This document shows, piece by piece, positions 33,028 through 44,867 of a stretch of 64,000 bases of DNA (the first letter of the stretch is position 1; each line of letters starts with the position of its first letter). Under the pieces are notes generated by a model. The model was not told the origin of the DNA. It was given only the letters and a program-made list of their open reading frames with translations, and did no database searches. The stretch spans positions 1 through 64,000 of IMG/VR virus record IMGVR_UViG_3300017776_000008; one strand, given 5' to 3'. Origin of the DNA: a virus. Both the position numbers and the translations under genes were made by a program.

Positions 33028-33062
33028 ATACACATTACTTGGTTATGGATACGCAATACAAT

Positions 33063-35561
33063 ATGAAATTTTATACTAGTGTCTCTCGTTATGGCAACAA
33101 CCTACTTTACCGTGGATATGAAAACGGCTTAAAAGTTCAAAAGAAAATCAAATTTCAACCTACTCTTTTTGTAGCAACTCCTAAAGGCGATTGGAAATCA
33201 ATCGATGGCATTCCTTGTGCTCCTGTAATGATGGATTCTATGCGAGATGCTAAGGAATGGATTCAAACAAACAAAGATACTGCAGGTAGACAAATCTTTG
33301 GTAATGACAAATACATACCTGCATTTATCAATGATGAGTTCCCTGGCGATATTGAATTTAATAGTAATCAGATTAATGTAAGTACAATCGATATCGAGGT
33401 TGCATCTGACGAAGGCTTTCCACAGCCGGAAGAAGCTAACTATCCAATTATTTCGATATGCCTAAAGAACAATATTGATAACACATACTACGTCTGGGGC
33501 CTTAATGACTACGATGTAGATGCTTCCGTTATGACTACTCATCGTGTGGTTTATCAAAAGTGCGACTCAGAGTTACAACTAATGCATGCGTTTATCGCAC
33601 ATTGGTCGACTCCATCTCACACACCAGATGTTATTACTGGCTGGAACGTACGCTTCTTTGATATTCCATATATCGTCAATCGTTGTCTTAAGTTATTCAG
33701 CGAAGATGTGGTTAAGCGACTCAGTCCCTGGGGGTTGGTCGATCAACAAAACATTACTCAGATGGGCCGTACGCAACAAGCATATGATCTCAAAGGCATT
33801 GCAACTGCTGATTACCTAGAGCTATTCCAGAAGTATACTTACACCGCTCAAGAATCTTATCGCCTCGATCATATTGCTAATGTAACACTTGGCGAAAAGA
33901 AACTATCCTACGAAGAGCATGGTTCACTCCATACTCTCTATCTCCATGATCATCAAAAGTTTATTGACTATAACATCAAAGATGTCGAGTTAGTAGAACG
34001 CATGGAAGATAAGCTAGGTTTGATTACGCTTATGATGACAATGGCTTACAAAGGTGGTGTTAACTACTCGGATACTTTCGGCGTTACTGGAATCTGGGAG
34101 TCAATCATTTATCGCCATCTGTGGAAAAAGAAGGTTGCTATTCCATTCTATTCTGAAAAGATGAAGTCGTCCTATCCTGGTGGTTACGTTAAAGAACCTC
34201 ATGTTGGATTGCACGACTACGTAGTATCTTTTGATCTAAACTCACTATATCCATCACTCATTATGCAATACAATATGTCTACAGAAACTATTGCAAGTGG
34301 TGAAACAGTCGGCATTGATATTGATAAGATACTTGAAGGTTACACATTTGATAACAAAGGTAAAGCAACTGGTGCCTCTGGTCAATTATTCAACGTCGAT
34401 AAGAAAGGTGTATTCCCTACTCTCGTTGATAGCATGTACAGTGAACGTGTTGTCATTAAGAAACAAATGCTCGACGCAGAAAAAGAATTGCAGAAAGTAG
34501 ACCCTGCAGAAAAGCAACAAGTGTACAATATTGAACGTCGGATTGCAGTAGCTGAAAACCAACAGATGGCTATCAAAATTCTACTCAACTCACTCTATGG
34601 TGCTCTTGGTAATCGTTACTTCAGATTCTTTGATCAGCGTATTGCTGAGGCTATTACATTATCCGGTCAGCTAACTATTCGGTGGGCAGAGGTTGCTATT
34701 AATGGTTACCTCAATAAAATCATGAACACTAACAAAGATTATGTTATTGCAATCGATACCGACTCACTCTATGTTAACCTTGGCGATCTTGTTGAAAAGG
34801 TCAATCCTAAAAATCCAATTGACTTTCTTGATACTGTTGCGCAAGAAAAGCTCGAACCAGTTCTCAAAGATGCTTACGATGAGCTATACAAGCGCATGGG
34901 TGGTATTGAAAACAGAATGGTTATGAAACGAGAAGCTATCGCAGACCGTGGCATCTGGACGGCTAAGAAACGATACATTCTAAATGTACACGATAACGAA
35001 GGTGTGCGATACAAAGAACCTAAACTAAAAATCATGGGCATTGAGGCTATCAAATCTTCAACACCAGCACCATGTCGTGATGCACTTAAGGCGTTATTCA
35101 AAGTTATTATGAAAGGTAACGAAGGCGATACGCAGATGGCAGTACAGCAATTCAAAGAATACTTTTGCTCTCTACCAGCTCACGAAGTTGCATTCCCTCG
35201 TGGTGTATCCAAAGTTAATGAATATGCAGACAGTGCTACAATCTATCGTAAAGGTACTCCAATCCATGTTCGTGCTGCGTTGATGCATAATCGTCAGCTC
35301 AAAGTTCATTCGCTAACCAAACGATACGAACCAATCAAAAACGGCGAGAAGATTAAGTTTGTCTATCTCAAAGTTCCTAATCCAATCAAAGAAAATGTGA
35401 TTGGCTTTAACCAGTATTTACCAAAAGAGTTTGCATTGGATAAATACATTGACTATGAAACTCAATTCGAAAAAACATTCCTCCAGCCAGTTGAACCAAT
35501 ATTCAAAGCAGTTGGTTGGTCGACGGAAGAAGTGCAATCTTTGGAAGATTTTTTTGGCTAA
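33063..35561 (+). CDS. 43: DNA polymerase gp43
   Basis: Family B replicative polymerase with 3'-5' exonuclease. Exo I is STIDIEVAS (Asp110, Glu112 from this start). The polymerase has motif [12 protein letters not shown] near residue 390, motif [19 protein letters not shown] near 503-520 and motif [10 protein letters not shown] near 570. The C-terminus ends LEDFFG, a clamp-binding peptide like that of T4 gp43. ATG 33063 matches the T4 N-terminus (MK-FY); ATG 33045 or TTG 33039 would add 6 or 8 residues. The 832-residue product compares with 898 in T4. No intein or intron. Confidence 0.97.
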
Positions 35562-36318: not shown

Positions 36319-37213
36319 TAGCATATACGATAATAAAACAGTCAAGAGAATGGACTACCAGTCTTTTGACGAGTTTGAAAAAGTATTGTACCGTTTAGCA
36401 AGTAGTGAGAAGTATCAAAAGAAAACTGATGCACCCCTTATCTCACCCGCTACATATAAGACCGGAACCACCCGAGCAAACGCTAACGTCACTGCTTGGG
36501 GTGGCTTCGGCATTGTTGATGTCGATGACTTCGAAGGTAAGATCGAAGATATTCATGATAAGTATTCTGACTACAAATATGTTTGCTATTCAACAGCAAG
36601 CTCTACCAAAGAGCAACCAAAGTTTCGTTTGGTATTTCCATTAACAGAGAACGTACCTGCGGATAAGATCAAACATTTTTGGCATGCACTCAATAAAGAA
36701 ATTGGCGATATTGCTGACGCACAAACTAAAGATCTGAGCCGTATGTACTATGTGCCATCTAAATACAAGGACGCATACAATTTTATTTTTACCCACGATG
36801 GTAAGATTATGGATCCAAAAGTATTGATGGAAAAGCATCGTTATGCAGTTAAGTCAGAATCATTCTTCGACCGACTACCAGAAGCTATTAAGAAAGGATT
36901 GCTTGAGCACAAAAAAAACCAGCTCAATAACACAAACTACAGTTGGACTGGCTACGATGATTGTCCATTTGTAAACAAGAAGCAAGTTGAAGAATATAAA
37001 GCAATTAGTAACTCAGGTTGGTATTTACAGATGTATAAGATCATGGTATCAACAGCTGGTAATGCAATGCAACGAGGGTATCCTATTACTGCAAGAGAGA
37101 TTGCTTGGATATGCCAAGACCTTGATAACCAAACTGGTAGCTGGTATGGTAAACGCGATATGGTAAAAGAAGCAGAACGTGCTATTGAGTTTTGCTTTAG
37201 AAATACTTTATAA
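36296..37213 (+). CDS. PrimPol-like (archaeo-eukaryotic primase superfamily) protein
   Basis: 305 residues from ATG 36296 (GTG 36287 would add 3). The N-terminal half has the AEP layout: GIVDVDDFEG (about residues 66-75) as the catalytic D-x-D, then YSTASSTKEQPKFRLVFPL (about 91-109) as the conserved Ser and Arg strand, and TKDLSRMYYVPSKY near 139-152. This matches primase-like domains of plasmid RepB and P4-type proteins. The C-terminal 100 residues are a helical domain. T4 uses the unrelated gp61 primase, not seen in this window. The protein may prime replication or act in repair or damage tolerance. Confidence 0.65.
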   Translation: MVSLTIFNSIYDNKTVKRMDYQSFDEFEKVLYRLASSEKYQKKTDAPLISPATYKTGTTRANANVTAWGGFGIVDVDDFEGKIEDIHDKYSDYKYVCYSTASSTKEQPKFRLVFPLTENVPADKIKHFWHALNKEIGDIADAQTKDLSRMYYVPSKYKDAYNFIFTHDGKIMDPKVLMEKHRYAVKSESFFDRLPEAIKKGLLEHKKNQLNNTNYSWTGYDDCPFVNKKQVEEYKAISNSGWYLQMYKIMVSTAGNAMQRGYPITAREIAWICQDLDNQTGSWYGKRDMVKEAERAIEFCFRNTL

Positions 37214-37216
37214 ATA
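37209..37216 (+). promoter_or_regulatory. Late promoter box overlapping the PrimPol stop
   Basis: TATAAATA across the stop codon, 82 bases before the 28-aa ORF at 37299. The gap also holds a TATAAT at 37271-37276 with a weak -35 (TTGGTT, 37247-37252), so either could serve the mini-gene. Confidence 0.45.
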
Positions 37217-38378: not shown

Positions 38379-38407
38379 TGTACATTTGGTCTTAATTGTT
38401 GTATAAT
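38379..38407 (+). promoter_or_regulatory. Sigma70-like promoter of the DNA-modification operon
   Basis: TGTACA at 38379-38384, 17-base spacer, TATAAT at 38402-38407, 26 bases before ATG 38434. Seven coupled genes follow without another promoter until 43505. Confidence 0.88.
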
Positions 38408-38433
38408 ATACCTTTAAATTATGGAGTATTCCT

Positions 38434-38763
38434 ATGAAAGAATCACTAAAAGTCTTGCAAGAATGTGCAGAACTTCAAACTAAAAAATCTAACGATTATC
38501 AGAATCCAAATTCGCGAATAAAGCAAGCCGACTACTATCCACGCGGTGTTGCTTCTATTCTCGACATTATCCAAGCTAAAACTCTACGCCTATACAGCGT
38601 AATCGAAGCTATGGAATCAGACCCTGAGTATAATCCAAACTTTGAATCCATTGAAGACTCTGGTAAAGATCTTATTAACTATGCATCGTTTTTAGTTGCT
38701 TATGCTCGTGGTGGTATTGAAGGCCAAACAGACGATAAAGATTTTCTTAACCGGAGCAAGTAA
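38434..38763 (+). CDS. DUF1599-like (nucleotide-modification-associated) protein
   Basis: 109-residue helical protein with KKSNDYQNPNSRIKQADYYPRG (residues about 17-38) and ILDIIQAKTLRLYSV, the typical layout of the DUF1599/Nmad1 family that clusters with base-modification genes in phages. It opens the operon behind the 38402 promoter and overlaps dCMP hydroxymethylase by one base. Function unknown; association with modified-nucleotide metabolism is from genomic context of the family and matches what is seen here. Confidence 0.7.
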   Translation: MKESLKVLQECAELQTKKSNDYQNPNSRIKQADYYPRGVASILDIIQAKTLRLYSVIEAMESDPEYNPNFESIEDSGKDLINYASFLVAYARGGIEGQTDDKDFLNRSK

Positions 38764-39434
38764 TGACTTTAGAAATTGATCAAATCCGCACCTACTTTCG
38801 CAATGAACTAGAGAATGAAAACTTTACCACTGATCGTAATGGTGGTAAAACTATTGAATTGATTGGTGCATCTTTTTATGCAGACGAACCAGCTATCTTT
38901 GGTACTCCCAACGAAGAGTATATTAAAGCAGAGTTGGGTTGGTACGATAGCCAATCTACTAATATCAATGATATCTACGTAGATCGCGATCCACCGCAGG
39001 CTTGGCAGATGACCGGCAATCGACACGGTGAGATTAATTCTAACTATGGCTATCTAATACATTCAAAAGGTAATGGTAATCAATATCAGAACGTTCTTGA
39101 TGAGCTATGCAAAAACCCAGACTCTCGTCGTGCATCGATGGTATATCAGCGTCCGTCTATATGGGCAGATTACAATGAGAATGGCAAGAATGACTTCATT
39201 TGTACTAACTCTGTGACTTACTATATAAGAGATGGTAAACTAGATTGTGTAGTTCAAATGAGATCTAACGATGTAATCTTTGGTTATCGCAATGACTACG
39301 CATGGCAACGACACGTGCAGTGTCAATTAGCAGATGATCTAAACAGATGTACATATGTCAAACCAGGACAGATTATTTGGCAAGTACAAAACTTACACGT
39401 CTATGACAGACACTTTGACTTGGTAAAACTATGA
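38763..39434 (+). CDS. 42: dCMP hydroxymethylase (T4 gp42 homologue)
   Basis: Thymidylate-synthase-fold enzyme that makes 5-hydroxymethyl-dCMP from dCMP and methylene-tetrahydrofolate. Catalytic Cys147 is in DFICTNSV. The motif MRSNDVIFGYRNDYAWQ (residues 166-182) places Asp178 where thymidylate synthases have Asn; this Asp selects cytosine and is the hallmark of T4 gp42 (Asp179, Cys148). Other conserved stretches are ELGWYDSQ (57-64), GEINSNYGYLI (89-99) and RRASMVYQRPS (122-132). 223 aa against 246 in T4. It overlaps the deaminase by 4 bases. The phage DNA is therefore predicted to contain hydroxymethylcytosine. Confidence 0.95.
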   Translation: MTLEIDQIRTYFRNELENENFTTDRNGGKTIELIGASFYADEPAIFGTPNEEYIKAELGWYDSQSTNINDIYVDRDPPQAWQMTGNRHGEINSNYGYLIHSKGNGNQYQNVLDELCKNPDSRRASMVYQRPSIWADYNENGKNDFICTNSVTYYIRDGKLDCVVQMRSNDVIFGYRNDYAWQRHVQCQLADDLNRCTYVKPGQIIWQVQNLHVYDRHFDLVKL

Positions 39435-39907
39435 GCGAATTTTATGATTGGGGCGTAAGTAAACATTACCGATGGGATAAGCGATATCTAAATCTTGCTG
39501 GTCATATTGCAGCATGGTCAAAAGATCCATCTAAAAAGGTAGGTGCAATTGCTGTAGGTTCAAAGGGGCAAGTATTGGCTCAAGGCTATAATGGTTTTCC
39601 TAGAAAGATCAATGATTCTGCAGTACTATATAATAATAAGGAAAGCAAATACGAACGTGTAGTTCACGCTGAAATGAACTGTATATATAATGCTACCTAC
39701 AACGGAACGTCGCTAGACGGTTCTACAATGTATATCCACGGTTTGCCAGTTTGTTCAGAGTGCGCCAAGGGTATTATCCAGGTAGGCGTTAAGCGAGTAG
39801 TTACAACAGCGATAGACGATACGATGCCTGAGAGATGGATCAAGTCTACAGAATTAACCAAACAATTATTTATGGAGGCCGGAGTCACTTACGACTTTAT
39901 TGCATAA
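39431..39907 (+). CDS. cd: dCMP deaminase
   Basis: Zinc-dependent deaminase turning dCMP to dUMP for thymidylate synthesis. VVHAEMNCIY (His-Ala-Glu, about residues 77-86) and LPVCSECAKGI (PCxxC-type zinc ligands, about 101-111) are both complete. The N-terminus RYLNLAGHIAAWSKDPSKKVGAI is typical of the family. 158 aa, against 193 in T4 Cd. Coupled to gp42 by ATGA; together they split dCMP between hmC and T synthesis. Confidence 0.93.
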   Translation: MSEFYDWGVSKHYRWDKRYLNLAGHIAAWSKDPSKKVGAIAVGSKGQVLAQGYNGFPRKINDSAVLYNNKESKYERVVHAEMNCIYNATYNGTSLDGSTMYIHGLPVCSECAKGIIQVGVKRVVTTAIDDTMPERWIKSTELTKQLFMEAGVTYDFIA

Positions 39908-39909
39908 TT

Positions 39910-40743
39910 ATGGAACATTTAATCATACCAACTTTAGGTAGAATCAATAAGCAAAAGACTTATAATAACCTACCAGAAAAATGGCAAAAACGGGTTAGCT
40001 TCGTAGTTCAACCACACGAAGCTGCACAAATGAAAGCACTTTATGGAAGTAAGGTATTAGTCTTACCAGCAGAAATCAAAGGATTATCTCCAACCAGGCA
40101 ATGGATATGGGATACATTCTATGGTACACGACATATGGTGCTTGATGACGATATGGAATACTTTAAGTACAAAGGTCCAGCACCAGAACATCTTGATACC
40201 AAATGGGAAACACGAGATATGTCTGACGCTGAGTTTGATGATGCATTTGAGACTTTTAATCGTTGGTGTGATGATGAACAAATCTATCACGGTGGCTTTT
40301 CTACATCGTGGGTAGTACCAGATCTTAAGTATTGGCCTGAACAGAATAACGTACGTATTATGACTAACTCATACTTTGATTCTAAGAATTTACCAAGAAA
40401 CATTGTATGGGATAAGTTACCAACCTCACAAGATTTCCATGCTAATCTACAGTTACTTACTCAGGGATTTGCTAATAGAATCACAACGCGTTACAGAGTA
40501 TCAATATCAGAAACCAACGCAAGTGGTGGGTGTTCAGAATATAGAACAATTGAGTTGAGCAATCAAGTTCATACTCAACTAGCTGAAATGTATCCAGACT
40601 ACGTTAAGCTAAAAACAAAGACTCTTGCAAATGGTCCGTGGAAAGGCCAAGAGCGAGTAACATGTCATATCCAATGGGCAAAAGCTTATAAGGATGCAAT
40701 TAAAAAGAAAGAAGAGATATCCTTGGAGGGTTTTTTCGGATGA
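39910..40743 (+). CDS. GT-A-type glycosyltransferase, candidate hmC sugar transferase
   Basis: ATG 39910, two bases after the deaminase stop, is chosen; the frame is open from 39835 but that part overlaps the deaminase. The start MEHLIIPTLGR and the metal-binding MVLDDDMEYF (Asp79-Asp81) match GT-A glycosyltransferases that use nucleotide sugars. 277 residues, no signal or membrane segment, so it acts in the cytoplasm. It ends SLEGFFG, a clamp-binding-like tail resembling that of gp43. In an operon with gp42 and two nucleotide-sugar enzymes it is the best candidate to glycosylate hydroxymethylcytosine in DNA. Confidence 0.75.
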   Translation: MEHLIIPTLGRINKQKTYNNLPEKWQKRVSFVVQPHEAAQMKALYGSKVLVLPAEIKGLSPTRQWIWDTFYGTRHMVLDDDMEYFKYKGPAPEHLDTKWETRDMSDAEFDDAFETFNRWCDDEQIYHGGFSTSWVVPDLKYWPEQNNVRIMTNSYFDSKNLPRNIVWDKLPTSQDFHANLQLLTQGFANRITTRYRVSISETNASGGCSEYRTIELSNQVHTQLAEMYPDYVKLKTKTLANGPWKGQERVTCHIQWAKAYKDAIKKKEEISLEGFFG

Positions 40744-41957
40744 GACACGCAGGAATTGTACCACTAATTGGTGGCGAAATATTAGCTTCAGACGAAGCGT
40801 ATGGTAAGACTCCAGAATACTTAATGACTTATTCTGGATTCATGGACAATGAGCAACACTTAATTAAGCATTATAAGAACAAAGGGCATGACATTCCCTA
40901 TCACGTTCTTGATGAATTGCCTGATGGCGTTACGATGGAGAACGTTGATGTTGTTTCTTCAGTTTGCCCTTGTGCTGGCTTAAGCACTTACCACAATTCA
41001 CATGGTGAAGAAAACCAAAACAATCAATGGATGGAAAAATCCTCTGAGTACGTACTAAAAGTAATTAAGCCAAAGGTACTATGGGGTGAGAACGCACCAG
41101 GCCTAGCAGGTAAGATTGGTGAATTCATGCGAGAAAAACTTTACAACCTTGGCCAAGAGCATGGTTATAATTTCTCTATCTTTCTAACCAAAAGCCTGCT
41201 CCACGGCAACCCACAATACCGTAAGCGTACTTTCTTTTTCTTCTGGAAAAAAGACGAGTTTAACAACAGTGTTCCACTGTTTAACTATATTAAGAAAGAA
41301 CGTCCAACTATTCAAGAGTTAATTCTTAATGCAGATACCTCGTTCCAACATGAGATTTTAAATAAGAAAACTCCAAGCAAAGACGACGCTTATTATCGCT
41401 ATATGCTAGAGGTTGTCAATAACGGAATGACTCATGCTGACTATTCTGCCTCAGTTGCTCACGAACACAAATCAGTAACAGTAGAATCTAGATTACTTAA
41501 GATGGGAATTAAGCATAACACCATTGCAGAGTGGATGGATCAGTTCCCACAGTTTGAGCGAGAAGCAGCAAAGGCTAGACGTAAGCATAAAAAGCTAGAA
41601 TCAGGCGGTGGCATTATGCTTCGTGGTACAATCATTCCAGTAAACTATATTGGCGCATACGTAGTTCATCTTCCTAAAGTTGTGGCACATCCGGTTGAAG
41701 ATAGATATCTTTCTATTGCTGAAGGTAAAGCTATTATGGGTCTACCTTCAGATCTTGAAGTCGTGGATCCAATGAAAAACTATAATCATATTTGCCAGAA
41801 CGTTCCATTCTATACTGCAAAAGATATGGCACTAGAGGTTCAAGCTTGTCTAAATAAACAAAGGGATTTGATTGATACTAAATACTTATTCCAAAACAAT
41901 TTAGCACAAAAATATGACTACGATCGAAACGATAATAGTCTGGAGAACTTTTTATGA
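40740..41957 (+). CDS. Divergent cytosine-C5 methyltransferase-like protein
   Basis: 405 residues with C5-MTase motifs: SSVCPCAGLS (residues 73-82; motif IV with nucleophile Cys78), WGENAPGL (115-122; motif VI ENV), GNPQYRKRTFFF near 158-169 (motif VIII), YLSIAEGKAIMGLPSD near 331-346 (motif IX-like) and ICQNVPFYTAKDMALEV near 357-373 (motif X). The motif I SAM loop at the N-terminus is weak (PLIGGEILASDEAYG). It is overlapped by 4 bases on both sides, within the modification operon. It might methylate DNA, or have been adapted to cytosine-5 chemistry in hypermodification. The substrate is unknown. Confidence 0.75.
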   Translation: MRHAGIVPLIGGEILASDEAYGKTPEYLMTYSGFMDNEQHLIKHYKNKGHDIPYHVLDELPDGVTMENVDVVSSVCPCAGLSTYHNSHGEENQNNQWMEKSSEYVLKVIKPKVLWGENAPGLAGKIGEFMREKLYNLGQEHGYNFSIFLTKSLLHGNPQYRKRTFFFFWKKDEFNNSVPLFNYIKKERPTIQELILNADTSFQHEILNKKTPSKDDAYYRYMLEVVNNGMTHADYSASVAHEHKSVTVESRLLKMGIKHNTIAEWMDQFPQFEREAAKARRKHKKLESGGGIMLRGTIIPVNYIGAYVVHLPKVVAHPVEDRYLSIAEGKAIMGLPSDLEVVDPMKNYNHICQNVPFYTAKDMALEVQACLNKQRDLIDTKYLFQNNLAQKYDYDRNDNSLENFL

Positions 41958-42685
41958 GAATACTATTAACAGGAACGCAGGGGTATAGAAAAGGATTTAT
42001 CGGTAATCGATTCCTAGATCTATACAAAGACAAATACGATATCGTTGAGTTTGAAGGCGATATCAGAGATGCTCAATGCATTGATTTACGCGAATACGAT
42101 ATGGTAATTCATCTCGCTGCTTTAGCAGGTGTCCGTAGATCACATGAAATTCCAGAAGAATACTGGCAAACTAATGTTACAGCATCTAAGTACATTTTTG
42201 ATTCTTGCAGATATTACAAGGTACCTATTGTATATGCTTCATCTTCGTCAGTGTACGAATGGTGGCAATCACCTTACGCTGCTTCTAAGTACGCTATGGA
42301 GGCTTTAGCCCCTGATGGATCTATTGGACTAAGATTCCACACAGTCTATGGACCAAACAGTAGAACTGATATGCTATACGATATGCTATTAAAGAAAGAT
42401 CCAAAGCTTTCGTATATCACAGAGCACACTAGAGATTGGACTCATGTTGACGACGTTTGCTCAGCTATCGCTTTATGCGTAGATAACTATAGCAAGATAG
42501 AAGAAAAAGCTATCGATGTCGGTAATGGTAAACCCGTTACAGTAAAACAAATGGCTGACAAAGTTTGGCCTGGAAATAATTTGCCAGTCAAAGAAGTAAC
42601 TGGCGAGAGAGAACACACATGCGCAGATCCAGAGGTACTATTAAGTTATGGATGGGAACCACAACATCATATATTGGAGAACTAA
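41954..42685 (+). CDS. NAD-dependent nucleotide-sugar epimerase/decarboxylase (SDR)
   Basis: 243-residue extended SDR. The NAD loop is TGTQGYRKGFIG (residues 7-18), the substrate loop HLAALAGVRRS near 54-64 resembles UDP-glucuronate 4-epimerases, the catalytic triad is SSSSVYEWW plus YAASK near 98-114, and RFHTVYGP near 131-138 also matches that group. It is short for the family (about 310-340 aa). Because a UDP-glucose dehydrogenase is next door, the likely substrate is UDP-glucuronate, giving UDP-galacturonate or, by decarboxylation, a UDP-pentose. Confidence 0.85.
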   Translation: MRILLTGTQGYRKGFIGNRFLDLYKDKYDIVEFEGDIRDAQCIDLREYDMVIHLAALAGVRRSHEIPEEYWQTNVTASKYIFDSCRYYKVPIVYASSSSVYEWWQSPYAASKYAMEALAPDGSIGLRFHTVYGPNSRTDMLYDMLLKKDPKLSYITEHTRDWTHVDDVCSAIALCVDNYSKIEEKAIDVGNGKPVTVKQMADKVWPGNNLPVKEVTGEREHTCADPEVLLSYGWEPQHHILEN

Positions 42686-42686
42686 A

Positions 42687-43532
42687 ATGAGAATAGCAGT
42701 TATTGGCCACGGTTTCGTTGGTAAAGCAGTAGATTATGGATTTAGTAATCCAGGAGTAGAAAAACGAATACTCGATCCAAATTATGGAACAACATCAGAA
42801 GACGTAAGAAATCTAGCTAAATGGAAGCCAGATCTTACATTCATCTGTGTTCCTACACCTATGCAAGATGATGGCGATATCAATACCGCTATTCTTGACG
42901 AGGTAATGGAAGATCTATCTGGAGTATCCGGTTTAATTGTAATTAAATCGACTATCACTCCATCTACGATTGATAAGTATTCACAATCAAACGTCGTATA
43001 CAATCCAGAGTTCTTGACAGAACGATCTGCGTGCGAACAGTTTGTAAATCCAGAGTTCCACATCTTCGGCGGTGAAGAAGAGCAGTGTGAACAATTGGAA
43101 AAGTATTACGAAGTGTATAGTTTATGTACGCCATGTCCATCATTCAAAGTAAATAAAGCTGAAGCAAGTTTCGTAAAGTATGCTATTAATTCTTTCCTAG
43201 CAACTAAAGTAACTTTCTTTAACCAGCTATATGATGCATGCAACGCACATGGTAACGTAAACTTTAACCAAGTAATTAAAGCAGTCGGTGCTGACGATCG
43301 TGTTAGTATTTCACATACAAAAGTTCCAGGGTTTGATGGAAAGCAAGGATATGGTGGAGCATGCTTCCCCAAAGACACTCTCGCCTTTTCTAAGTTCAGC
43401 GATAAACTTACCCTATTGGCAAAAGCTATTGAAATTAATAACGCTTACAGATCACAGTACGAACGCGATGAGAGAGAAAAAGAACAAAATATTTCTTTCG
43501 ACCATGTACAAAGCACCGTATCTGTGATATAA
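42687..43532 (+). CDS. UDP-glucose 6-dehydrogenase-like protein, short form
   Basis: ATG 42687 follows TTGGAGAACTAAA, one base after the previous stop; the frame is open further upstream but only within the epimerase gene. Rossmann motif is VIGHGFVGKAV (residues 4-14). ICVPTPMQDDGDIN near 53-66, VYNPEFLTERSA near 105-116 and the active-site GYGGACFPKD near 218-227 (catalytic Cys) are all intact. 281 residues, so the C-terminal domain of bacterial enzymes (about 390-450 aa) is largely missing. It supplies UDP-glucuronate for the sugar branch of the operon. Its 3' end contains the promoter of the bS21 gene. Confidence 0.9.
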   Translation: MRIAVIGHGFVGKAVDYGFSNPGVEKRILDPNYGTTSEDVRNLAKWKPDLTFICVPTPMQDDGDINTAILDEVMEDLSGVSGLIVIKSTITPSTIDKYSQSNVVYNPEFLTERSACEQFVNPEFHIFGGEEEQCEQLEKYYEVYSLCTPCPSFKVNKAEASFVKYAINSFLATKVTFFNQLYDACNAHGNVNFNQVIKAVGADDRVSISHTKVPGFDGKQGYGGACFPKDTLAFSKFSDKLTLLAKAIEINNAYRSQYERDEREKEQNISFDHVQSTVSVI

Positions 43533-43560: not shown

Positions 43561-43803
43561 ATGCCAAGCGTAGACTTAAGACCGAAAGGTAAGAAAAAAG
43601 CAATGCCATTTGAAGTGGCTATGAGAAAATTCAAGAAGTCTGTAGAACGAGCTGGTACTTTGCAAAAAGCAAAAGAAAAAGAGTTCTATGAAAAACCAAC
43701 TTCTAGGAAGAAAAGAAAGAAAGCAGAATCCATTATCAGATGGCGTAAGAAAGAAAGACAACTAGCACAAACTGGTTGGGAACAACCAAGGAGTAGATCA
43801 TAA
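43561..43803 (+). CDS. rpsU: Phage-encoded ribosomal protein bS21
   Basis: 80-residue basic protein with the bS21 signature: PFEVAMRKFKKSVERAG (residues 18-34) and KEFYEKPTSRKKRKKAES (46-63) parallel the E. coli S21 helices nearly position by position. AGGAGAAG precedes ATG 43561. S21 sits near the anti-Shine-Dalgarno end of 16S rRNA and helps initiation, so a phage copy could retune ribosomes towards phage mRNA. Phage bS21 genes are known from environmental phages. One-base overlap with uvsX. The N-terminal 15 residues (MPSVDLRPKGKKKAM) and the tail are phage-specific. Confidence 0.93.
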   Translation: MPSVDLRPKGKKKAMPFEVAMRKFKKSVERAGTLQKAKEKEFYEKPTSRKKRKKAESIIRWRKKERQLAQTGWEQPRSRS

Positions 43804-44867
43804 TGTCCGTAATGGATAGATTAAAAAAGAATAGTCGAGTCAAAGATACAGCTGTACTTAAAGACTCAGTATTCTTTACAGAAAAAGATATGGTAAAGAC
43901 TGAAGTACCTATGGTCAATATCGCGCTATCAGGCGATGTCGATGGTGGTTTAACCTCAGGCCTTACAGTTCTTGCTGGTCCGAGTAAACATTTTAAGACT
44001 TCGTTTGCTTTGTTGATGGCAGGTGCATATTTAAAAGAGCACGACGATGCAGTACTAATATTCTATGATTCAGAGTTTGGTTCACCACAATCTTACTTCG
44101 AGTCATTCGGTATTGACACATCTCGTGTATTACACACACCAATTGTTGATGTTGAGCAACTCAAGTTTGATCTTGTAAACCAACTCGAAGAAATTGAACG
44201 TAAAGACAAAGTCATTATCGTAATCGATTCTATTGGTAACCTTGCATCTAAGAAAGAATTGCAAGATGCTAAAGATGAAAAATCAGTAGCAGATATGTCT
44301 CGAGCTAAAGCACTTAAAGGCTTGTTTAGAATGGTAACACCATATCTAACTATGCGCAATATTCCAATGCTTGCTGTCAATCATACATATCAAGAGATTG
44401 GATTATTCCCTAAGGCTATCGTATCTGGTGGTACTGGTATTTACTACAGCGCAGACAACATCTGGATTCTTGGCCGTCAGCAAGTTAAGAAAGGCAAGGA
44501 AGTCAAAGGCTATAACTTTGTGATCAATGTAGAAAAATCACGCTTTGTGAAAGAGAAATCTAAAGTACCTATCACAGTATCGTGGGACGGTGGCATCGAG
44601 CAATACTCTGGCCTACTAGAAGTTGGATTAGCAGGTGGCTATGTTACTAAACCAAGTATGGGTTGGTATGCTAAAGTAGATCAATCAACTGGTGAACAAA
44701 TGGACCAGAAGTATCGTGAGAAAGATACTCTAACTGCTGAGTTCTGGGAACCAATCTTTGCAAATACTAACTTTAAAGAGTTCTTAAAAGCACACTATTC
44801 TATTGGTCATAAGCCTATGTTGGAAATCGACCTCGACGAAGTAATTGAAGAAGAGGCCAGTGCGTGA
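43803..44867 (+). CDS. uvsX: RecA-like recombinase UvsX
   Basis: Strand-exchange protein for recombination-dependent replication, working with UvsY. Walker A is GPSKHFKT (residues 59-66), as in T4 UvsX; Walker B VIIVIDSIGNL near 137-147; L2-like VNHTYQEIGLFPKAIVSGGTG near 196-216. 354 residues (391 in T4). The acidic C-terminus (EIDLDEVIEEEASA) is family-typical. It overlaps bS21 by one base and the next gene by 4. Confidence 0.97.
   Translation: MSVMDRLKKNSRVKDTAVLKDSVFFTEKDMVKTEVPMVNIALSGDVDGGLTSGLTVLAGPSKHFKTSFALLMAGAYLKEHDDAVLIFYDSEFGSPQSYFESFGIDTSRVLHTPIVDVEQLKFDLVNQLEEIERKDKVIIVIDSIGNLASKKELQDAKDEKSVADMSRAKALKGLFRMVTPYLTMRNIPMLAVNHTYQEIGLFPKAIVSGGTGIYYSADNIWILGRQQVKKGKEVKGYNFVINVEKSRFVKEKSKVPITVSWDGGIEQYSGLLEVGLAGGYVTKPSMGWYAKVDQSTGEQMDQKYREKDTLTAEFWEPIFANTNFKEFLKAHYSIGHKPMLEIDLDEVIEEEASA

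What the first reader, a model, noticed from the sequence alone, without database searches (positions are those of the whole stretch)
38379..43532. Single operon for sugar-decorated cytosine: gp42, deaminase, glycosyltransferase, C5-MTase-like, epimerase, UDP-glucose dehydrogenase
Seven genes with 1-4 base overlaps or gaps follow one promoter. gp42 makes hydroxymethyl-dCMP; UDP-glucose dehydrogenase makes UDP-glucuronate; the short SDR can epimerise or decarboxylate it; the GT-A enzyme can transfer the sugar. T4 adds glucose with alpha/beta transferases, and RB69-type phages add arabinose. Neither T4 glucosyltransferase is visible here, and the nucleotide-sugar genes suggest a pentose (arabinose/xylose) or uronic-acid decoration instead. 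Such decoration would block many restriction and CRISPR nucleases.
Basis: partly seen in the sequence, partly recalled or inferred. Interest (0 to 1): 0.85.

Follow-up and report, generated by a model that had tools for sequence, protein, structure and literature searches.

The report
Phage island for uronic-acid-decorated cytosine
A marine T4-like virus carries one tightly packed set of seven genes that probably replaces cytosine with hydroxymethylcytosine and hangs an acidic sugar (most likely galacturonic acid) on it, and a cytosine-methyltransferase look-alike with a rebuilt cofactor site turns out to be the constant partner of many such sugar-swapping islands in related viruses.

Summary
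The seven-gene run at 38434-43532 is real; the single promoter at 38379 is not above chance. The TS-family gene belongs to the T4 gp42 clade (52% identity; Cys148, Asp179, Asp171, Tyr218 kept), so hydroxymethyl-dCMP is the likely product, not the 5-hydroxy-dCMP of RB69-type phages. The GT is a TAGT (PF20691), the T6 second-sugar family. The sugar genes point away from a pentose: the SDR matches UDP-glucuronate 4-epimerases and has Ser, not the decarboxylase Glu, at the diagnostic position. Best reading: UDP-Glc to UDP-GlcA to UDP-GalA, transferred to hmC in DNA (not shown chemically). A sister architecture (gp42, deaminase, DNA alpha-glucosyltransferase homologue, UDP-GlcA 4-epimerase, UGD, MTase-like) supports this; against it, the same UGD also sits beside KDO-type genes in contigs without gp42. 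New here: the 'C5-MTase' keeps its catalytic residues but has remodelled SAM motifs in 38/38 non-redundant homologues, and lies downstream of gp42 and dCMP deaminase in 34/34 distinct loci with enough flank, while the sugar genes swap (TAGT, AGT, GT8/GT-B, UDP-Gal mutase, inositol-phosphate synthase). Its reaction is unknown. Verdict: reader largely right; sugar narrowed to a uronic acid.

The parts
37209..37216 (+). T4-type late-promoter octamer TATAAATA upstream of the gene run (candidate only)
   Evidence: pattern scan: 18 in the window against 7.7 expected by chance
38434..38763 (+). 109-aa protein of unknown function (phrog_1485/phrog_18404), kept upstream of gp42 in 25 of 34 related loci
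38763..39434 (+). dCMP hydroxymethylase, T4 gp42 clade
   Evidence: PF00303; 52% identity to T4 gp42; 1b49 at 2e-71; Cys148, Asp171, Asp179, Tyr218 kept
39431..39907 (+). dCMP deaminase
   Evidence: PF00383, phrog_174
39910..40743 (+). TAGT-family glycosyltransferase, proposed DNA hmC uronosyltransferase
   Evidence: PF20691 1e-15, phrog_842 1.2e-38; no solved relative by sequence
40740..41957 (+). C5-MTase-fold protein with catalytic residues kept and SAM motifs remodelled; constant partner of gp42
   Evidence: PF00145; alignment of 38 non-redundant homologues; model with C5-MTase fold; 34/34 loci with gp42 and deaminase upstream
41954..42685 (+). short extended SDR, proposed UDP-glucuronate 4-epimerase
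   Evidence: best PDB matches 5u4q, MoeE5, BcUGAepi; Ser128, Thr178, Arg185 and Thr280 equivalents kept
42687..43532 (+). short UDP-glucose 6-dehydrogenase without the C-terminal domain, catalytic GGACFPKD motif kept
   Evidence: PF03721 and PF00984, phrog_9148, 4a7p 2.6e-25

Best explanation
A DNA-hypermodification island of a marine T4-like phage. gp42 makes hydroxymethyl-dCMP, which after phosphorylation replaces dCTP in DNA; the dCMP deaminase diverts leftover dCMP. UGD oxidises host UDP-glucose to UDP-glucuronate and the SDR epimerises it to UDP-galacturonate; the TAGT-family enzyme transfers the uronic acid to hmC in DNA. The C5-MTase-fold protein is a core part of the island that probably flips cytosine or hmC out of DNA and attacks C6 with its cysteine, but not as an ordinary SAM methylase; it most likely performs a further, unidentified step. 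Shown by sequence: family and residue assignments, gene order and co-occurrence. Inferred: DNA as the acceptor, the identity of the sugar, and the MTase-like reaction.
For: gp42 residues and 52% identity to T4; TAGT family; UGD catalytic motifs; SDR best matches are UDP-GlcA 4-epimerases with Ser in place of the decarboxylase Glu and Thr178/Arg185/Thr280 kept (PMC7984243, PMC12338863). Sister architecture gp42-deaminase-AGT (PF11440, 4e-51)-UDP-GlcA 4-epimerase homologue-UGD-MTase-like, contiguous; an epimerase of that family matches 5u4q at 2.5e-68 but UXS only at 6e-16. No T4 alpha- or beta-GT family in the record or in related contigs.
Against: No chemistry. The same short UGD occurs next to uvsX in many contigs without gp42 in the flank, sometimes with KDO-type genes, so it is not specific to DNA modification. 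UGD lacks the C-terminal domain and the SDR is about 80 residues short, so activity is not assured. BcUGAepi Pro85 and Gln211 are Ala and His here. TAGT in T6 is a second-sugar enzyme, and the record is a fragment, so another first-sugar GT could lie elsewhere.
Confidence: 0.55

Rival explanations
1. hmC is glucosylated by the TAGT enzyme with host UDP-glucose, while UGD and SDR serve a separate purpose such as altering a surface polysaccharide or LPS of the host.
For: UGD occurs beside KdsA-like, KdsB-like and cytidylyltransferase genes in T4-like contigs without gp42 in the flank; the T6 TAGT enzyme uses glucose (PMC13390438).
Against: UGD and epimerase are contiguous with gp42, a DNA-GT-family gene and the MTase-like gene in two different architectures.
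Confidence: 0.22
2. A pentose (arabinose or xylose) decoration: the SDR decarboxylates UDP-GlcA, or a host decarboxylase supplies UDP-xylose and the SDR epimerises it to UDP-arabinose.
For: UGD supplies UDP-GlcA, the precursor of pentoses; pentose decorations are known in RB69-type phages and Thanatos (PMC13390438, PMC12838424); Ala at the BcUGAepi Pro85 position is also typical of UDP-xylose 4-epimerases (PMC12338863).
Against: The decarboxylase Glu is Ser in all 12 aligned SDRs; no decarboxylase among PDB matches at E<1e-5; the Thr280 equivalent is Thr, not the Val of UDP-xylose 4-epimerases; the UDP-GlcA 4-epimerase 5u4q itself has Ala at position 85. The base enzyme is not of the RB69 type.
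Confidence: 0.1
3. The MTase-like protein is an ordinary SAM-dependent C5-methyltransferase with a divergent cofactor site, methylating residual cytosines or host DNA.
For: It falls in PF00145 above cut-off and its predicted fold matches C5-MTases. A C5-MTase-fold enzyme with an altered SAM-type donor, carboxy-SAM, is known (8yf3).
Against: Motif I FxGxG reads [VI]PLIG in 38/38, motif X GN[SG] reads CQN in 37/38 (AQN in one), and the motif II acidic residue is mostly missing. gp42 should leave few unmodified cytosines, yet the link to gp42 is absolute in the loci tested.
Confidence: 0.25

Closest known systems
T6/T4 glucosyl-hmC pathway (gp42, alpha-GT, TAGT or beta-GT)
   Same: gp42-type hmC synthesis; TAGT-family GT; slot between DNA polymerase and uvsX
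   Different: No alpha- or beta-GT family found; own UGD and epimerase; MTase-like partner that T4 lacks at this locus
RB69/NP (Mosigvirus) arabinosyl-cytosine pathway
   Same: Phage-encoded TS-family base enzyme plus nucleotide-sugar genes in the same slot
   Different: RB69-type base is 5-hydroxycytosine from a different TS-family enzyme; arabinose through NTP-transferase and kinase-type genes; neither is present here
Shewanella phage Thanatos pentosyl-cytosine
   Same: T4-like phage with a sugar other than glucose on cytosine
   Different: Uses a UDP-xylose pyrophosphorylase (TH1_063) and the bifunctional TH1_060; no UGD or SDR pathway reported (PMC12838424)
Bacillus phage SP-15 phosphoglucuronated dihydroxypentyluracil
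   Same: Phage UDP-glucose dehydrogenase linked to glucuronate in DNA (PMC5977210)
   Different: Modified uracil, phosphodiester-linked; no gp42-type hmC, no 4-epimerase listed
C5-cytosine DNA methyltransferases (HhaI family), including the carboxy-SAM enzyme 8yf3
   Same: Fold; motif IV Pro-Cys, motif VI Glu-Asn, motif VIII Arg-x-Arg
   Different: SAM-site motifs I, II and X and the Gln after the catalytic Cys are replaced throughout the family

Membership tests
dCMP hydroxymethylase (T4 gp42) | Cys148 nucleophile and Asp179 cytosine-specificity residue | tested here: met
   aligned residues identical (roles from PMC6400193)
dCMP hydroxymethylase (T4 gp42) | Folate-side residues Trp82, Ser94, Tyr96, Asp171, Tyr218 | tested here: met
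   all kept in the window protein
dCMP hydroxymethylase (T4 gp42) | Makes 5-hydroxymethyl-dCMP | not testable with these tools
   needs an assay
5-hydroxy-dCMP synthase (RB69 type) | Clusters with the Mosigvirus enzyme | tested here: not met
   28.6% to p000v against 52% to T4; p000v and X20 differ at Trp82, Ser94, Asp171 and Tyr218
TAGT glycosyltransferase (PF20691) | Profile match above cut-off | tested here: met
   58.7 bits against cut-off 27.5; phrog_842 1.2e-38
TAGT glycosyltransferase (PF20691) | Transfers sugar to a modified base in DNA | not testable with these tools
   inferred from family and context
UDP-glucuronate 4-epimerase | Ser at BcUGAepi position 128 (Glu in decarboxylases), Thr178, Arg185 | tested here: met
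   SSSSVY and TVYGPNSRTDM in the window protein; Ser, Thr and Arg invariant in 12 homologues
UDP-glucuronate 4-epimerase | Full-length substrate domain; Pro85 and Gln211 | tested here: inconclusive
   243 aa against about 320; Ala and His at these positions, Thr280 kept; the UDP-GlcA 4-epimerase match 5u4q also has Ala at position 85
UDP-xylose synthase (UXS) | Catalytic Glu in place of Ser128 | tested here: not met
   Ser in all 12 SDRs
UDP-glucose 6-dehydrogenase | NAD-binding and central domains with catalytic Cys (GGxCxPKD), Lys and Asn | tested here: met
   PF03721 and PF00984; GYGGACFPKD, VKYAINSF
UDP-glucose 6-dehydrogenase | C-terminal UDP-binding domain | tested here: not met
   absent here and in the aligned viral relatives; a short phage form of the family
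C5-cytosine DNA methyltransferase | Catalytic Pro-Cys, Glu-Asn, Arg-x-Arg | tested here: met
   38/38 homologues
C5-cytosine DNA methyltransferase | SAM-binding motifs I, II and X | tested here: not met
   motif I [VI]PLIG 38/38; motif X CQN 37/38; motif II acid mostly absent
T4 alpha-/beta-glucosyltransferase | PF11440 or PF09198 in the genome | tested here: not met
   none in the 64.7-kb record or seven related contigs (59-137 kb); controls rang in T4, phage G and AB1I1M-1; the record is a fragment

The most novel reading that the evidence does not exclude
The window is one member of a large family of modular hmC-decoration islands in T4-like phages: gp42 and dCMP deaminase at one side, a C5-MTase-fold protein with a remodelled cofactor site, and between or around them an exchangeable sugar cassette (TAGT plus UDP-GalA synthesis, AGT, AGT plus UDP-GalA synthesis, GT8/GT-B, UDP-galactopyranose mutase, inositol-phosphate synthase with an HMUDK_hel protein). 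The MTase-fold protein would do a new kind of covalent chemistry on hmC or cytosine in DNA, and DNA with galacturonic acid, galactofuranose or an inositol-derived group on hmC would exist in nature.
Probability: 0.35. Interest if true: 0.85.

Novelty: new variant of a known kind. Interest (0 to 1): 0.66.

Why it matters
An acidic sugar would add a negative charge to essentially every cytosine, an unusual DNA polymer likely to matter for restriction, CRISPR and type IV nucleases. The swappable sugar cassette around a constant core gives a list of predicted new DNA nucleosides that LC-MS could test. The conserved MTase-like partner points to an unrecognised step in hmC-DNA metabolism that the T4 model has not revealed.

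Tried and rejected
Promoter at 38379: not above chance. RB69-type arabinosyl-hydroxycytosine: TS-family enzyme of the wrong clade. Foldseek on the SDR model (pLDDT 76.5) does not discriminate: 4,6-dehydratase, UGAepi, GALE and UXS all score closely. S-TIM54 560-aa neighbour as a relative of the 377/390-aa proteins: no. S-TIM54 seemed an exception to the gp42 link (no gp42 match), but its 'ThyA' has Asp at the aligned dCMP-specificity position (RSNDMATGVPLD); phage G gp319 reads RSNDIIFGTPYD and lies near a putative CMP/dCMP deaminase and two alpha-GTs; XG4 reads RSCDAIFGFPND. Bacterial genome scan for the MTase-like protein: only two contigs of one Rhodobacteraceae MAG, possibly phage, not examined. 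Literature searches found no report of a uronic acid on hmC or of this MTase-like family, but most subscription papers and bioRxiv preprints, including Lee et al. 2025, are not held. NCBIfam gave no specific name for the SDR or GT.

Full report
Observation. The seven ORFs exist at the stated place, all on the + strand, with overlaps of 1-4 bases or gaps of 1-2 bases. Profile searches give an unknown 109-aa protein, a thymidylate-synthase-superfamily enzyme, dCMP deaminase, TET-associated glycosyltransferase (TAGT), C5-methylase, extended SDR and UDP-glucose dehydrogenase. The run lies between DNA polymerase (33039-35561) and uvsX (43803-44867), the slot that holds beta-gt in T4 and the arabinose module in RB69 (PMC6024577). 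The window is part of a 64.7-kb virus record, so the rest of the genome is not seen. The 'one promoter' is not supported: 23 sigma-70-like sites against 22.0 +/- 4.8 in shuffles. A late-promoter octamer TATAAATA is at 37209.

Base. The TS-family protein is 52% identical to T4 gp42 and 28.6% to the Mosigvirus p000v enzyme; T4 dCMP hydroxymethylase is the top solved relative at 2e-71. Glu60, Trp82, Ser94, Tyr96, Cys148, Asp171, Asp179 and Tyr218 of T4 are kept, whereas p000v and X20 change Trp82, Ser94, Asp171 and Tyr218; Mosigviruses are reported to make 5-hydroxy-dCMP instead (PMC13390438). I conclude hydroxymethyl-dCMP by homology, not by assay.

Sugar. The UGD keeps its catalytic motifs but lacks the C-terminal domain, as do the aligned viral relatives. 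The SDR matches UDP-glucuronate 4-epimerases best (5u4q, MoeE5, BcUGAepi; 8e-16 to 4e-12) and no decarboxylase at E<1e-5 (that 5u4q, deposited as a dTDP-glucose 4,6-dehydratase, is such an epimerase is my reading of its sequence motif). According to PMC7984243 epimerases hold the substrate carboxylate with Thr126, Ser127, Ser128 and Thr178, and decarboxylases have Glu in place of Ser128; PMC12338863 adds Arg185. The phage protein has Ser at 128 and keeps the 178, 185 and 280 residues, but has Ser at 126 and Ala and His at 85 and 211. So UDP-GalA is the favoured product and a pentose is disfavoured. Structure prediction (pLDDT 76.5) agrees with an extended SDR but cannot choose between activities.

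Transfer. The GT belongs to PF20691 and phrog_842, the family of the T6 enzyme thought to add glucose to glucosyl-hmC (PMC13390438). T4 alpha- and beta-glucosyltransferase families are absent from the record and seven related contigs, two of them 126 and 137 kb; controls rang. That the acceptor is DNA is inferred from family and gene context. The best independent support is a sister architecture in L091, L093 and L096: gp42, deaminase, a homologue of the DNA alpha-glucosyltransferase (PF11440, 4e-51), a full-length UDP-GlcA 4-epimerase homologue, UGD and the MTase-like gene in contiguous order. The phage C48C1 member of that epimerase family matches 5u4q at 2.5e-68 and BcUGAepi at 3e-51, but UXS only at 6e-16.

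Counter-evidence. The short UGD is also common next to uvsX in contigs with no gp42 in the flank, sometimes with KDO-type genes (DAHP/KdsA-like, CTP_transf_3), PMM-like or CTP_transf_like genes. It is therefore a general phage sugar gene, and a surface-polysaccharide role cannot be excluded for the window.

The MTase-like protein. A first scan found 38 relatives, a profile scan at least 592. Among 34 distinct loci with at least 6.5 kb upstream, all 34 have gp42 and dCMP deaminase upstream, 25 also the 109-aa gene; these loci were picked by similarity to the window's group, so the count does not cover the whole family. What lies between varies: TAGT; AGT alone; AGT, epimerase and UGD; GT8 or GT-B enzymes; UDP-galactopyranose mutase (PF03275, 1e-55); inositol-1-phosphate synthase-like plus HMUDK_hel protein. 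The cultured phage XG4 has gp42 (46%), an NTP-transferase, two GT-B-like proteins and the MTase-like gene in a row. In 38 non-redundant sequences the catalytic Pro-Cys, Glu-Asn and Arg-x-Arg of C5-MTases are invariant, while SAM-site residues are replaced: FxGxG becomes [VI]PLIG, and motif X GN becomes CQ in 37 of 38 (five phage C5-MTases aligned as controls keep the SAM-site Phe, Gly, acidic residue and Gly-Asn). The AlphaFold model (pLDDT 77.7, with weak loops at the catalytic region) has the C5-MTase fold; the top PDB match, by a negligible margin, is a C5-carboxymethyltransferase using carboxy-SAM. dN/dS for this gene is 0.06-0.13. My inference is that it is an active enzyme attacking C6 of cytosine or hmC but not a standard SAM methylase. 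From general knowledge, C5-MTases without SAM can add or remove hydroxymethyl groups in vitro, which makes hydroxymethyl chemistry a candidate; a changed SAM-like donor is another.

Novelty. Sugar-decorated cytosine in phages is a known kind. A uronic acid on hmC, the exchangeable cassette and the constant MTase-like partner were not found in the literature held, which is incomplete; phage SP-15 is a precedent for glucuronate on a different base (PMC5977210). I rate it a new variant of a known kind, with an enzyme of unknown chemistry as the most novel part.

Noticed in passing
L026-L038, L163, L171, L182-L202 (e.g. L029:2194-10773): A different gp42 island: inositol-1-phosphate synthase-like, HAD/PNKP-like, HMUDK_hel-domain and a 377-aa unknown protein before the MTase-like gene; suggests an inositol-derived hmC hypermodification.
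   Followed up: partly
L216:6419-9756, L161:5782-10230: gp42 islands with UDP-galactopyranose mutase (PF03275) and a 370-374-aa unknown protein before the MTase-like gene; suggests a galactofuranose decoration.
   Followed up: partly
L110:3801-5111, L086:1744-3033, L087:1049-2311: Short UGD near an asparagine-synthase-like amidotransferase with dCMP deaminase, or near a carbamoyltransferase; possible amidated or carbamoylated uronic sugars.
   Followed up: no
L136:7114-7956 (cyanophage S-TIM54): Gene annotated ThyA has Asp where thymidylate synthases have the dUMP-specific Asn, so it may act on dCMP; it lies about 2 kb from an MTase-like homologue.
   Followed up: partly
L138 and L229 (Bacillus phage G gp301-gp319): MTase-like gp301, two alpha-GTs, a nucleotidyltransferase, a deaminase and a TS-family protein with the dCMP-type Asp lie within about 15 kb, suggesting phage G DNA may carry a sugar on cytosine.
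   Followed up: partly
L176:7778-10200: Two MTase-like genes in tandem (30% and 55% identical to the window's) in a gp42 island with XG4-type GT genes.
   Followed up: no
L067:5757-8004: KdsA-like (PF00793), KdsB-like (PF02348) and cytidylyltransferase-like genes directly upstream of UGD in a T4-like contig without gp42 in the flank.
   Followed up: partly
window, whole: T4-type late-promoter octamer TATAAATA is enriched (18 against 7.7 expected, 17 of 18 on the + strand).
   Followed up: no
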